A stretch of 64,000 bases of DNA, taken from Methanolinea mesophila (lineage in GTDB: Archaea; Halobacteriota; Methanomicrobia; Methanomicrobiales; Methanospirillaceae). Location of the stretch: positions 2,051,529 through 2,115,528 of the forward strand of contig NZ_JAGGKR010000001.1 in NCBI RefSeq assembly GCF_017873855.1, read 5' to 3'. The position numbers and the translations under genes are program-made. The notes beneath the pieces are model-generated. The model was not told the origin of the DNA. It saw only the letters and a list, made by a program, of their open reading frames with translations, and made no database searches. This document shows, piece after piece, positions 47,219 to 52,086 of this stretch; position 1 is the first letter of the stretch, and each line of letters starts with the position of its first letter.

Positions 47219-48883
47219 TTATGAAGCAGCATACCCGCTGGAGAGCAGGGAATCTCCGCCCTGTCCAGGGCGATAGACCTGAAAGTCTATCAGGCTCAGG
47301 TAGTAAGGAATCATTCGCACGGTTTCGCGATCTTTTTCTTTTTCTGCCTCGGAAAGACTTTCGTAGGCTATCATCGAAGGATGAGTTTTAGCCCGTTCGT
47401 CCTTAATAGATCCAAACGAGAATCCCTGTGTATCCATTTCTTTTACCCACCGGATATGTTCCTGCTCTGCGAGGTATTCGACCTCACCAGGGGTAAACGA
47501 AAAACAGGCCGCCGACCAGTCGGTCATCGGGCAGATATCACAGCCGATCGCATGTAATTTTTCAACGATGCTCGCTGCCTGGGACCGGTTCGATTCTTTC
47601 AGCCTCCGGGAGAGGCGTTCCCATGGGACGAGAGCCGGGTCGTCGAGAAGAGGGTCATCCGACAGCCTTGCGGTCACGTAGTGTTCGTGGATCGCCCTCG
47701 CGAGTGTTTCCCTTATCCCTCCGAGCACCATGCCACATTCAGAGGATACTGTAAGGCTGTTGAACGGGATGATCCCTGTCTCTCCCATCACTTTCTTTCC
47801 GAGCAGGCTGGCAAGGGACGGATTGTTGTCCATTCTCACAAATATCCTGGTATCAGCTCCCTTCAGATGGTGCGAGAGAGTTAGGGCGGCTGAAAGTCCG
47901 GCAGTGTCGTCCTTGAGACATACGAATGCGATCGTAGGGGAGGAAGGTAGCCTCTCTAGGTCTATAAACCCGGCTTTCTGAAATTCTGCCGACTGGATGT
48001 CTATTGATACCGCCGTAATGCTCGCTGCATCCTCCAGGCGGGGATACGTTGCGACAAGCCGCTCCTTGAGCGACGATGCTTCCAGATCGATGAGGATCAT
48101 GCGAAGTTTTTCGTTCGACTGCCTCTTGTCGAACCATTCCCGCGCAGCACGTGCAGTGATGTTCTCGCCAAGCTTCCCAAGACCGACCACGACCAAAAGA
48201 GGGGGATTACTTGTCCATTCCCCGGTATGAGGGGAAAAAAATCTTCCGAGCAGAATCCGGGCGCTCAACGCGGGAGGGTTGTAGAAATCGATTCTCATCG
48301 GTTTATTCTGGCGGGGTAAAAGCGCATGTTCCCGGATAATCCTCCAGAGCCCCGGGTTGTGAATCTGGAGGATGCAGTTGAGCGGTTCCGACCTTGTCTT
48401 TTTCACAAGTTTCCCTGCGGAAAGAGCGATTTCGGCATTTATACCATCCGAATCGGTCAGGGCAAGAAGCGTCCTTGCCCGGGTTATTCTCGCCAGTGCG
48501 AGCGTGGATGGGTCCTTTGGGTCTCCCGATAGCACTATAGTGCCGTAGTTTCGGAGACTCTGAGCTTCCGGGGAGCGGTTGTCAGACCCTATGACAATGG
48601 TCTTGATCTTTTTCGCTTTCAGCTGGCGCACGAGCGGAGTGGTAATCTCATGAAGTCCGCAGATAATGACGTGATCCCTGCAAAACAGGAGAGGGATCTG
48701 GCGTATTTTATCCCAAAAATAGATCACGACGACGCCTGCGGACCCGGATCCGGCAAATGCTGCAGTAAGAATTTTGAGGTAATCCGCCTGGTTCGGCGCG
48801 ATCACCTCTTCATAAATCGGGATTATCCCGCTCCTGAGTAAGGTGAAAAATGCCTGCAGCACCCCTATCAGACTGTTATCCAT
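47219..48883 (-). CDS. Membrane-anchored double TrkA-N protein with C-terminal RyR-like domain
   Basis: 554 aa. One TM segment (about 36-57) anchors two NAD-binding Rossmann units: HVIICGLHEITTPLVRQL (71-88, about 71-185) and LLVVVGLGKLGENITARA (229-246, about 229-390). Residues 465-535 match the ryanodine-receptor-type repeat: EYLAEQEHIRWVKEM, GFSFGSIKDERAKTHPSMIA, SEAEKEKDRETVRMI. No K+ pore is encoded. Such proteins are thought to sense nucleotides; the ligand is unknown. It is 99 bp downstream of a TIR gene on the same strand. Confidence 0.82.
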   Translation of the reverse strand: MDNSLIGVLQAFFTLLRSGIIPIYEEVIAPNQADYLKILTAAFAGSGSAGVVVIYFWDKIRQIPLLFCRDHVIICGLHEITTPLVRQLKAKKIKTIVIGSDNRSPEAQSLRNYGTIVLSGDPKDPSTLALARITRARTLLALTDSDGINAEIALSAGKLVKKTRSEPLNCILQIHNPGLWRIIREHALLPRQNKPMRIDFYNPPALSARILLGRFFSPHTGEWTSNPPLLVVVGLGKLGENITARAAREWFDKRQSNEKLRMILIDLEASSLKERLVATYPRLEDAASITAVSIDIQSAEFQKAGFIDLERLPSSPTIAFVCLKDDTAGLSAALTLSHHLKGADTRIFVRMDNNPSLASLLGKKVMGETGIIPFNSLTVSSECGMVLGGIRETLARAIHEHYVTARLSDDPLLDDPALVPWERLSRRLKESNRSQAASIVEKLHAIGCDICPMTDWSAACFSFTPGEVEYLAEQEHIRWVKEMDTQGFSFGSIKDERAKTHPSMIAYESLSEAEKEKDRETVRMIPYYLSLIDFQVYRPGQGGDSLLSSGYAAS

Positions 48884-48982
48884 GCTCTCCCCCTATAACC
48901 GTTGCCGCACCCAGAATTCTGTCGGTTTCACAAATAATTGGCGTGAAACTGGTTATAAAATCCGGGCCGGATAGTATGGACG

Positions 48983-50386
48983 TCATCGCGGATCGTCATT
49001 GCGCTCCGGGGACTCAGCGGAAGGAAGGAGCACCCGGATGGTATCGGCGAGATGCACGAGATGTCTTTCGAGCGGGGGGGTCATCGCGTCCAGCCAGTGC
49101 GGGATTCCAATAAGGTACTCCATGTCTTTCGAGGGGGGGATGTTCTCGATCCGGAAGGGAATAATAATCACTCCCCTGGAGACTGCATGGGTGAGTTCAC
49201 GGACGACATGAGGTGATGAATTCGAATGAGAGGAGTACACCAGCACCATTACCCGGCTCCCGTCGATAGCCTCAACAATCGAACGGGGATAATTTGATCC
49301 GGGGAGGACGTCCCTCGGAGCGATCCAACACCTGATACCTCGCGATTCGAGGGACGCGCAGGTAGCGTCTGCCACTGCCTTGTCGTTCGAGGAGTAGCTG
49401 ATAAACACATCATGGTGGTCTCCACCGATCCGATCCCCCGGTTCATGGGCATATTCCGGTCCGCTCGCGGGGGGCGGATAGATCGCCCTGCCACCATCAC
49501 TTCCCCGGACGGCACTTCTCTTCATCCGGATGAAGAGAAACAGTCCCGCTGCAACGATGGCAACGGCCGCCAGGAGCAGGACCTGAGCGAGCGGATCGGG
49601 CATTGAGGGGGTTCCTGCCGTTGAACCGCTCGTGTTTCCACCGATATAACTGCGCAATGCCGATTCGGCTTTGGCCCTGGCCTGGATCAGGTCGGCATTC
49701 CCGGGGGATACGATCAGCCCCCTGTTGTAACCCTCGATTGCTTCCTGATATCTTCCCATGTGAAACAGAGTGTCTCCCTTGTATTGCCAGGCGATGGCAC
49801 TCCGTTCGTCGATATCGGTGGCACGTTCGAATGCGTCAAGGGCTGACGGATAATTCCCAATAGAATAATAATCAAGGCCCATACAGAGCCAGGCATCGAA
49901 ATTGTCCGGGGCGAGTTCGATGACGTTCGTGTAGGCCACTATCGACTCGTTCGTCCTCCCGAGCGCGGACAGGGTGAGACCTTTCTGAAGCCATGCGAGC
50001 TGGTCGCCGGAATTGATCTCAAGGGCGTGATTAATCTCAGTGAGAGCTGCCTCGTCCTTCCCCTGCCGCGAATAGACATATGCCAGGCCTTTAAGCGCGG
50101 GGGTCATGTCCGGTTCGACTGCGAGCACGTGCAGGTACGCATCTGCTGCGTCATCCAGTCGTTCGGTCTGGACGCACACGTATGCGAGCGAATACCAGGC
50201 GTCGGTGTACCCCGGGTCAATGGAAACGGCATTACGGTACGCGTCGACGGCCGCAGAATAGTCTCCTTTCTGCCGGAATTCCTCTCCCTGGTTGTACCAT
50301 GTTTTTGCATCCGTGGCCCCTGCGGGCATGGCGGACAGGCATGCAAGCATCAGTGCCGACAGGATCACCAGGAACAGGAGGCGCAT
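48983..50386 (-). CDS. Receptor-like TPR-TM-TIR protein
   Basis: 467 aa. A signal peptide (1-25), six TPR-like repeats (about 27-245), a linker, one TM helix (267-287) and a cytoplasmic TIR domain (about 325-455): HDVFISYSSNDKAVADA, IRCWIAPRDVLPG, and SSPHVVRELTHAV with Glu397 at the position used for catalysis in NAD-cleaving TIRs. The topology puts the repeats outside and TIR inside, as in Toll receptors. Its job is unknown. It lies between a TPR lipoprotein and the TrkA-N/RyR gene, all on the minus strand. Confidence 0.88.
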   Translation of the reverse strand: MRLLFLVILSALMLACLSAMPAGATDAKTWYNQGEEFRQKGDYSAAVDAYRNAVSIDPGYTDAWYSLAYVCVQTERLDDAADAYLHVLAVEPDMTPALKGLAYVYSRQGKDEAALTEINHALEINSGDQLAWLQKGLTLSALGRTNESIVAYTNVIELAPDNFDAWLCMGLDYYSIGNYPSALDAFERATDIDERSAIAWQYKGDTLFHMGRYQEAIEGYNRGLIVSPGNADLIQARAKAESALRSYIGGNTSGSTAGTPSMPDPLAQVLLLAAVAIVAAGLFLFIRMKRSAVRGSDGGRAIYPPPASGPEYAHEPGDRIGGDHHDVFISYSSNDKAVADATCASLESRGIRCWIAPRDVLPGSNYPRSIVEAIDGSRVMVLVYSSHSNSSPHVVRELTHAVSRGVIIIPFRIENIPPSKDMEYLIGIPHWLDAMTPPLERHLVHLADTIRVLLPSAESPERNDDPR

Positions 50387-50520
50387 AGAAATGGATCATG
50401 TAACAATATCGAGGGGGTGTATAAAAACGCTGTGAATCGAAAGAGCCCCCGGGGGAAGGAGCGGAGGAATTGCATCCGAAGGTCGGGATAACAGTTTTTA
50501 CCGTGCGGGCAGTGGTTTTC

Positions 50521-51975
50521 CTAGGGTATCAGAGACCGGTTGTACGCGTCGCGGGCTGCTTCTTCATTCTCGATCAACAAATAGAGTACACCTATCTTCT
50601 CCCATACATCAGCATCACCGGGTTGTATCCGGGCTGTCTCATTGAAGGCGGTGATTGCGCCACGATAGTCCCCGAGGTCGCGGAGGACGACACCGAGGTT
50701 GTACCATGTATCCGGATTCCCGGAATCGAGCAGGAGGCTTTTATCGTAATATGCCTTTGCCTCTTCATAGTCTCCCTTTCGCAGGGAATAATCGCCAACT
50801 TTTTTCCAGTACATCGCAGAGCCCTCGCGGAGAACTTCGGCGTATACTTTTGCGGTGACAAAATCTTCAGAATAACTCGAGGGGTATCCCCCATAGCTTG
50901 AATATTCGAATGAAAACCTCGGGTCGATGACAAAATAATATTTCGAGGTCTTAGGGATGGAAATAAACGCTTCGGTGTCGAGGGAGAGATCTTCCTGGAA
51001 AATCCCTCCGTTGTTCGCCGAGATCTCCCCGTATGAATATCCCCAGTGTTCGGCGTCGGTGGTCCTGTTCCGAATATTCATCGCAACCGGTTCTACTTTT
51101 GAAAATGCCTCCATTGCTTCTGCATCGAGAACGAGGACGTTCACCGGCCTGGTAGTGCTCACCGAGATGTGAAGCGAATCTCCCGGGGCCAGTGTGGAAT
51201 ACCCATACTCGTCGAGCGGATAGATCTTGGTTGTGCCAACGTATCCTGTTGGGATGCCCACGATCTCGTTTATCGTATCCGGACCTTCACTCCTCGCTGC
51301 CACTCCCGGAAAGTCGTGCTCTTCGAGCTCCAGTGTCGTTCTGAAATAATCATGGGAGATCGAAGCTCCGGAGAGATCCCATGTGACGTCTCCATGGAAC
51401 CGCGGATCCAGTATGATGAGGTATTTTCCCTTCCTCGGGACAGTGAAAAGGACGATATCCTCTATGATATTGTCTTCCTGGGCGATGAGGGGCACTCCGT
51501 AAGAAAAACCGTAAGAATAGGAGACGGTGCGATCAGGTGCTTTTGAAGGCCTCGTTCCATATTCGGGGAGAAAGAGGGGGAACCTGTCGGCATAGAGGGA
51601 GTCTATAACGAGAAGATTGACAGGGCGGCCGGAAACGATATGGAGGGTATACTCGACATCCGGCGAGAAGTACTGGTAACCGTATTCTTCCGGGTCTATG
51701 ATCACGGGGTCCCCCCCTGCAAGTACAGGGAATGTCCGCGAGAATATCATACGGGAATAGGCCGGGACATTTTCAGAGGCGGGAGTTTCACTGGGAAGGG
51801 CTGCCACGGCTGAACTGTTGAGCTCGGATTCCTGCGTGGGAGTGGGAAGAGGGGTGACGGACTGAGTTTTCTCAGGAGGCATTGTGCAGCCACAGAGTAC
51901 TACCATGCCTAGCAGTGCGATTACCAGAAGGGATGGGACAGTTAAATACCCCCCACACGACATCAGATGATTCAT
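50521..51975 (-). CDS. TPR lipoprotein with duplicated beta domain
   Basis: 484 aa from the ATG at 51975; the frame is open to 52020 and the start is uncertain. A lipobox LCGC (Cys30) is followed by a Thr/Pro linker. Two related beta domains follow: one with DPEEYGYQYFSP, GRPVNLLVID and KGKYLIILDPRF, the other with LDEYGYSTLAP, TRPVNVLVLD and SKYYFVIDPRF. Three TPRs end the protein (about 385-484). It is outside the cell membrane and precedes the TPR-TM-TIR gene by 134 bp. Confidence 0.82.
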   Translation of the reverse strand: MNHLMSCGGYLTVPSLLVIALLGMVVLCGCTMPPEKTQSVTPLPTPTQESELNSSAVAALPSETPASENVPAYSRMIFSRTFPVLAGGDPVIIDPEEYGYQYFSPDVEYTLHIVSGRPVNLLVIDSLYADRFPLFLPEYGTRPSKAPDRTVSYSYGFSYGVPLIAQEDNIIEDIVLFTVPRKGKYLIILDPRFHGDVTWDLSGASISHDYFRTTLELEEHDFPGVAARSEGPDTINEIVGIPTGYVGTTKIYPLDEYGYSTLAPGDSLHISVSTTRPVNVLVLDAEAMEAFSKVEPVAMNIRNRTTDAEHWGYSYGEISANNGGIFQEDLSLDTEAFISIPKTSKYYFVIDPRFSFEYSSYGGYPSSYSEDFVTAKVYAEVLREGSAMYWKKVGDYSLRKGDYEEAKAYYDKSLLLDSGNPDTWYNLGVVLRDLGDYRGAITAFNETARIQPGDADVWEKIGVLYLLIENEEAARDAYNRSLIP

Positions 51976-52086
51976 CTGGCGATGACATGATAAGAATAGC
52001 GGATTGGAGCTGCTTGTCAAGCAAATCGTATTTCACGACAGTCAGCTCCGGAGATGACCCGTCCGGAATTATTGCATGTTGAACTG

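What the first reader, a model, noticed from the sequence alone, without database searches (positions are those of the whole stretch)
47219..52020. Candidate envelope-to-cytoplasm signalling module: TPR lipoprotein, TPR-TM-TIR receptor and TrkA-N/RyR protein
Seen: three genes on one strand, with gaps of 134 and 99 bp. They are a surface TPR lipoprotein, a protein with outside TPRs, one TM helix and an inside TIR domain (Glu397 at the catalytic position), and a membrane protein with two NAD-binding Rossmann domains and a RyR-like C-terminus. Known: many bacterial and archaeal TIRs cleave NAD and make cyclic ADP-ribose isomers as alarm signals, as in Thoeris. In animals cADPR acts on ryanodine receptors. 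Inference: ligand binding outside activates the TIR, and the TrkA-N/RyR protein reads the NAD-derived product or NAD depletion. I know of no described system with this layout, but it may be coincidence.
Basis: partly seen in the sequence, partly recalled or inferred. Interest (0 to 1): 0.8.

Follow-up and report, generated by a model that had tools for sequence, protein, structure and literature searches.

The report
TIR sensor paired with RyR protein
A methanogen-like archaeon carries side by side an immune-type enzyme gene (TIR) and a membrane protein ending in the ligand-binding domain of animal ryanodine receptors, and the same pairing recurs across archaea and bacteria, suggesting a two-gene alarm system in which one protein makes a nucleotide signal and the other reads it.

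Summary
In detail: three minus-strand genes encode a TPR lipoprotein (50521-52020), a signal peptide-TPR-TM-TIR protein (48983-50386, Glu397 at the catalytic position) and a membrane RCK-RCK-RyR protein (47219-48883).

TIR-RyR pairing is not coincidence. In 199 genomes of the order, 16 of 34 RyR places have a TIR within 2 kb on the same strand (0.08 expected). In a set spanning many phyla, TIR sits directly beside a RyR gene in 32 of 83 loci (11 when positions are shuffled), mostly immediately upstream with tiny gaps.

The RyR part folds like the tandem Repeat12 of human RyR3. It keeps the four ligand residues, with identical spacing, of phage RyDEP, a RyR-domain protein shown in 2026 to bind and cleave the TIR products 2'cADPR and 3'cADPR. 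Some relatives carry a TVGYGD potassium-channel pore.

Best reading: a Thoeris-like system in which a TIR makes an NAD-derived signal and a RyR module on an RCK membrane protein reads it. The lipoprotein does not belong. The window protein has no pore motif, and the TIR has His where many cADPR-making TIRs have Trp, so product and output are unproven. I found no description of this pairing, but one key preprint could not be read.

The parts
48983..50386 (-). TIR receptor gene, 467 aa: signal peptide, 7 TPRs, one TM helix, cytoplasmic TIR
   Evidence: Pfam TPR_1 1.2e-39, TIR_2 1.2e-21; AF2 model pLDDT 86.5; TM 268-286 followed by RMKR
49640..50308 (-). extracytoplasmic TPR superhelix, residues 27-249
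   Evidence: AF2 helices H27-39 to H231-249; position outside inferred from the signal peptide and the positive-inside rule
49514..49594 (-). transmembrane helix, residues 265-291
49028..49411 (-). TIR domain, residues 326-453
   Evidence: profile match to solved TIRs incl. Cat1, AbTIR, SARM1
49196..49198 (-). codon of Glu397, catalytic position of TIR NADases; His393 stands at the Trp position of WxxxE
   Evidence: invariant in A5 and A7; aligned to Cat1 SDWCWDE
47219..48883 (-). RCK-RCK-RyR membrane protein gene, 554 aa
   Evidence: Pfam TrkA_N and RyR; AF2 pLDDT 87.4, pTM 0.83
48683..48874 (-). N-terminal helix hairpin, residues 4-67: weak membrane helices, no P-loop or TVGYG filter
   Evidence: relatives L037:7674-9533, L036:9645-11378 and L082 have TVGYGD at this place
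48224..48679 (-). first Rossmann/RCK domain, residues about 69-220, GxGxxG degenerate
   Evidence: Pfam TrkA_N 72-176; Foldseek GsuK, TrkA; motif check
47762..48199 (-). second Rossmann/RCK domain, residues about 229-374, GxGxxG and Asp266 kept
47264..47737 (-). tandem RyR repeats, residues about 383-540
   Evidence: two Pfam RyR stretches; Foldseek to human RyR3 Repeat12 over about 185-190 columns, E 4.5e-7
47330..47458 (-). span with the four ligand-site residues His476, Trp479, His501, Asp518 (RyDEP H75, W78, H100, D117; same spacing)
   Evidence: His476 113/113, Trp479 101/113, Asp518 97/115, His501 64/113 family sequences
50521..52020 (-). TPR lipoprotein gene: neighbour, judged NOT part of the conserved unit
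   Evidence: non-TPR part found mainly in G121, G149, G011, G164, away from RyR

Best explanation
This is an archaeal member of a widespread, Thoeris-like two-gene system. Gene 1 is a TIR enzyme, here a membrane receptor with outside TPRs. On activation it should use NAD+ (Glu397) to make an ADP-ribose-type signal such as 2'cADPR, 3'cADPR or a relative. Gene 2 is an RCK-ring membrane protein whose C-terminal tandem RyR repeats bind that signal in the pocket His476/Trp479/His501/Asp518. Binding should change the RCK ring and its membrane helices: ion flow in relatives that keep a TVGYGD pore, and in the window's pore-less form either TM clustering, as proposed for TM-macro ThsA, or control of a partner channel. 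Shown: genes, domains, folds, residues and conserved adjacency. Inferred: NADase activity, signal identity, binding by this protein, the output, and the outside trigger.
For: Adjacency in the order: 16/34 RyR places with same-strand TIR within 2 kb, expected 0.08; genome co-occurrence 20/24, Fisher p 1.7e-10. Across phyla: TIR at position -1 in 20 of 74 loci, none at -4 to -6; 14 of 23 upstream neighbours closer than 30 bp are TIRs; 32 of 83 loci against 11.0 after shuffling, p <= 5e-5; TIRs confirmed by Pfam in Chloroflexota, Acidobacteria, Aminicenantes, Sphingobacterium, Gammaproteobacteria, Planctomycetes. The window's own layout, TPR-TM-TIR plus RCK-RyR, recurs in L037, L043, L045, L084, L091. 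Ligand site: RyDEP residues and spacing present in the window and conserved; phage RyR proteins bind 2'/3'cADPR, two with nanomolar Kd. RCK ring: GsuK, TrkA, CASTOR folds; GsuK is opened by ADP and NAD+ (PMC3510474). Relatives with Ion_trans_2 pore, 1.2e-15. Archaeal TIR TcpO makes v-cADPR (PMC10022894).
Against: No biochemistry on any member. The TIR has His393 where cADPR-making AbTIR has Trp (WxxxE), a residue I recall as needed for cyclisation, so the product may be plain ADPR or another conjugate. The window protein has no channel filter. About half of RyR genes have no TIR close by. The gap here is 99 bp with a TATA-like box. RyR domains also bind ATP and ADP (solved RyR3 complexes), so the ligand could be an ordinary adenine nucleotide. 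RyDEP shows that the fold can also destroy the signal.
Confidence: 0.55

Rival explanations
1. Off-switch: the RyR protein is the cell's own hydrolase that cleaves the TIR signal to ADPR, as RyDEP does, and so ends or buffers the alarm. The RCK part tunes this to NAD or ADP level.
For: Catalytic dyad residues of RyDEP (H75, D117) are His476 and Asp518 here, nearly invariant in the family. RyDEP hydrolyses 2' and 3'cADPR.
Against: None of the eight RyDEP homologues tested besides RyDEP itself cleaved, although six bound. An off-switch does not need RCK rings, membrane helices or a potassium-channel pore. The same residues are kept in animal RyRs, which are not known as enzymes.
Confidence: 0.17
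2. Metabolic sensor: the RCK-RyR protein reads ADP, ATP or NAD+ and senses NAD depletion caused by the TIR, not a dedicated second messenger.
For: GsuK gating by ADP and NAD+; RyR3 Repeat12 is solved with ATP, ADP and AMP-PCP; second RCK keeps GxGxxG.
Against: The first RCK site is degenerate in this subfamily. The linked part is the RyR module, which also sits beside TIRs on an entirely different carrier, PAS-HisKA-RyR, so the RyR and not the RCK tracks the TIR.
Confidence: 0.15
3. Generic conflict-island neighbours: TIR and RyR proteins are both accessory genes that gather in the same islands without working together.
For: Patchy distribution (25 of 199 genomes). Other neighbours are diverse: WD40, FGE, TPR, RelA/SpoT, PPK2.
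Against: Sharp peak at position -1, same strand, gaps of 2-9 bp or overlaps, in unrelated phyla; nothing at -4 to -6.
Confidence: 0.1

Closest known systems
Thoeris (ThsB TIR + ThsA effector)
   Same: TIR gene next to an effector gene; proposed NAD-derived signal; TM-macro ThsA is also a nucleotide-gated membrane effector (PMC11204291)
   Different: Sensor is a RyR module on an RCK ring, not SLOG-SIR2 or macro; window TIR is a membrane receptor with outside TPRs; defence not tested
Phage RyDEP and RyR-domain sponges (PF02026, PMC13232231)
   Same: RyR fold; H75/W78/H100/D117 equivalents with identical spacing
   Different: Cellular, tandem repeats in one chain, fused to RCK-RCK-TM and coupled to a TIR gene; phage proteins oppose the signal instead of belonging to its pathway
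GsuK and other dual-RCK channels; CASTOR/DMI1
   Same: TM hairpin followed by two RCK domains; pore present in some relatives
   Different: Extra RyR module; window member has no selectivity filter
Animal ryanodine receptors
   Same: Tandem RyR repeats like Repeat12, on a membrane protein, in a pathway with a possible cADPR-type signal
   Different: No calcium-channel pore domain, SPRY or EF-hand; far smaller; fed by TIR and not CD38-type cyclase

Membership tests
Thoeris | TIR gene adjacent to effector gene | tested here: met
Thoeris | Effector is SIR2-SLOG or TM-macro ThsA (PMC11204291) | tested here: not met
   Effector candidate is RCK-RCK-RyR; no meaningful PADLOC match for the family. 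Types described later could not be read.
Thoeris | TIR makes an NAD-derived signal that activates the effector | not testable with these tools
   Glu397 conserved; His393 at the Trp position
Thoeris | Protects against phage | not testable with these tools
RyDEP / PF02026 RyR domain | Significant match to PF02026 | tested here: met
   59.6 bits, cut-off 27.4
RyDEP / PF02026 RyR domain | His, Trp, His, Asp ligand site | tested here: met
   His476, Trp479, His501, Asp518; spacing +3, +25, +42 as in H75, W78, H100, D117
RyDEP / PF02026 RyR domain | Binds or cleaves 2'/3'cADPR | not testable with these tools
RCK-gated potassium channel | Two RCK domains | tested here: met
   only the first is recognised by Pfam
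RCK-gated potassium channel | TM-P-loop-TM with TVGYG filter | tested here: not met
   Absent in the window protein; present in L036, L037, L082 relatives
TIR NADase | TIR fold with catalytic Glu | tested here: met
TIR NADase | Trp of WxxxE linked to cyclisation in AbTIR (own knowledge) | tested here: not met
   His393 in the window, also His in most partner TIRs
Animal ryanodine receptor | Calcium-channel pore with SPRY/RIH architecture | tested here: not met
   Only the RyR repeats match

The most novel reading that the evidence does not exclude
Archaea and bacteria have a TIR-to-RyR axis: TIR enzymes make cyclic ADP-ribose isomers that open or assemble RCK membrane proteins, some of them true potassium channels, through a RyR ligand module. 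This would be a prokaryotic counterpart, perhaps a forerunner, of cADPR control of animal ryanodine receptors and a new effector class for TIR immunity.
Probability: 0.42. Interest if true: 0.92.

Novelty: new variant of a known kind. Interest (0 to 1): 0.77.

Why it matters
If true, phages would carry RyR-domain sponges and hydrolases as copies of a cellular receptor for TIR signals. A new effector class, RyR-gated RCK membrane proteins and channels, would join TIR immunity. The old dispute over whether cADPR acts directly on ryanodine receptors would gain a simple prokaryotic test case, since the relevant pocket is the one studied in human RyR3 with dantrolene and adenine nucleotides.

Tried and rejected
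Lipoprotein as third component: rejected. PADLOC for the TIR, RCK-RyR and partner TIRs: no known system; TIR matches are partial and domain-only. Intact potassium channel in the window protein: rejected, no filter. L069 TIR hit from my iterative profile: false positive by Pfam, removed. A profile of all 17 archaeal RCK-RyR proteins was too divergent for the contig scan; a six-member one worked. The RyDEP sequence itself was not retrieved from the phage collection, so the comparison uses the residue numbers in the paper plus RyR proteins of a Pectobacterium and a Ruegeria phage, which may not be the same ones that were tested. Preprint 10.64898/2025.12.03.692087 (systematic discovery of TIR-based systems) is not held.

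Full report
1. Observation. The three reading frames, their strand and both gaps are as reported. Pfam finds TPRs in the genes at 50521-52020 and 48983-50386, TIR_2 (1.2e-21) at residues 327-422 of the second protein, and TrkA_N (1.4e-14) plus RyR (3.6e-16) in the third. AlphaFold2 models agree: the second protein is an N-terminal helix, a seven-TPR superhelix, one TM helix and a TIR domain. The third is two N-terminal helices, two Rossmann domains and a helical RyR region (pLDDT 87, pTM 0.83). The TM helix is followed by RMKR, so a TPR-outside, TIR-inside topology is a fair inference.

2. The RyR part. Pfam sees a second, weak RyR stretch upstream of the main one. The model aligns with the whole tandem Repeat12 domain of human RyR3 (E 4.5e-7, about 185-190 aligned columns, several ligand-bound entries), so the module is a tandem repeat of about 155 residues. 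A 2026 preprint (PMC13232231; [quoted passage not shown] W78 and H100 hold the ligand, and six of eight phage homologues bind the signals without cleaving them. The window has His476, Trp479, His501 and Asp518: +3, +25, +42, exactly the RyDEP spacing. In 116 RyR regions from the collected loci the first His is present in 113 of 113 scorable rows, Trp in 101, Asp in 97 and the second His in 64. RyR proteins of a Pectobacterium and a Ruegeria phage show the same residues.

3. The RCK part. Foldseek and sequence profiles point to GsuK, TrkA, KtrA and CASTOR gating rings. GsuK is opened by ADP and NAD+ (PMC3510474). In the window subfamily the first RCK has lost GxGxxG, while the second keeps it together with Asp266. 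Three relatives (L036, L037, L082) have a true TVGYGD potassium filter, and L037:7674-9533 scores Ion_trans_2 at 1.2e-15. In genome G161 the pore-bearing and pore-less forms are tandem neighbours. The window's genome holds only the pore-less form.

4. The TIR part. Glu397 is invariant in 16 TIRs collected next to RyR genes and falls on the Glu of Cat1 in a profile alignment. His393 sits where Cat1 has Trp. I recall that the equivalent AbTIR Trp is needed for cyclisation; that paper was not held. An archaeal TIR, TcpO, is a known v-cADPR producer (PMC10022894), so archaeal TIRs can make such signals, but this one is untested.

5. Adjacency. In 199 genomes of the order, RyR occurs in 25 and TIR_2 in 57. 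At curated cut-offs, 20 of the 24 RyR genomes have TIR (Fisher p 1.7e-10), and 16 of 34 RyR places have a same-strand TIR within 2 kb (0.08 expected). A contig scan gave 80 loci from many phyla. TIR is at position -1 in 20 of 74 loci and absent at -4 to -6. Fourteen of 23 upstream genes closer than 30 bp are TIRs. Beside any RyR gene, TIR occurs in 32 of 83 loci against 11.0 after shuffling positions (p <= 5e-5). Pfam independently confirms TIRs in Chloroflexota, Acidobacteria, Aminicenantes, Sphingobacterium, Gammaproteobacteria and Planctomycetes. The TIR genes carry varied extra parts (TPR, WD40, PDZ, PFK, Con A-like), as expected of sensors. The exact layout of the window, TPR-TM-TIR with RCK-RyR, recurs in L037, L043, L045, L084 and L091, in some with another gene between or with opposite strands. 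A second carrier, PAS-HisKA-RyR without an ATPase domain, also sits beside TIRs (L051-L054, L130). So the RyR module, not the RCK ring, is the common partner of TIR.

6. What does not belong. The lipoprotein's unique part has clear relatives in only a few other genomes of the order, at unrelated places or in genomes without RyR. TATA-like boxes upstream of both the TIR and the RCK-RyR gene (own reading) mean that co-transcription is not assured.

7. Mechanism. TIR activation, then an NAD-derived signal, then the RyR pocket, then the RCK ring, then a membrane output. The first four steps rest on homology plus conserved linkage. The output is ion flow in pore-bearing relatives and, in the window's protein, probably TM clustering as proposed for TM-macro ThsA (PMC11204291) or control of a partner. 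The main rival is an off-switch like RyDEP.

8. Novelty. The RyDEP preprint does not mention TrkA, archaea or cellular TIR-RyR pairs, and ten literature searches found none. A preprint on systematic discovery of TIR systems could not be read, and a 2015 survey of nucleotide-centric conflict systems that I recall was not available either. I therefore rate this a new variant of a known kind, Thoeris-like signalling with a RyR reader, and not categorically new.

Noticed in passing
L051:7292-8413 (-), L052-L054, L130; genomes G059, G140, G184, G064, G173: PAS-HisKA-RyR proteins of about 360 aa: the kinase ATPase domain seems replaced by a RyR domain, and the gene sits beside a TIR-TM gene. Possible nucleotide-switched histidine relay.
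   Followed up: partly
L044:4204-6801 (-), L046:3083-5629 (-), L058:14340-17087 (+) and others: A second RyR protein of 830-950 aa with an AAA ATPase domain often accompanies the RCK-RyR gene.
   Followed up: partly
L037:7674-9533 (+), L036:9645-11378 (+), L082:7818-9542 (+): Complete potassium-channel pores (TVGYGD) fused to RCK-RCK-RyR: candidate RyR-gated potassium channels.
   Followed up: partly
L048:11905-12834 (-): A RelA/SpoT-domain (alarmone synthetase) gene directly beside two RyR genes in a genome where no TIR is near them, as if another nucleotide maker took the TIR place.
   Followed up: no
L104:8903-10555 (+): TIR fused to a phosphofructokinase domain, downstream of an RCK-RyR gene in Aminicenantes.
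   Followed up: no
L038:2726-4165 (+), L078:9628-11145 (+): Polyphosphate kinase 2 gene downstream of soluble-TIR/RCK-RyR pairs in Methanomicrobiales.
   Followed up: no
phage records, e.g. Arthrobacter phages ON970608, OR613480: Phage RyR-domain genes lie next to PnuC nicotinamide riboside transporter genes in several actinophages, another NAD-salvage link.
   Followed up: no
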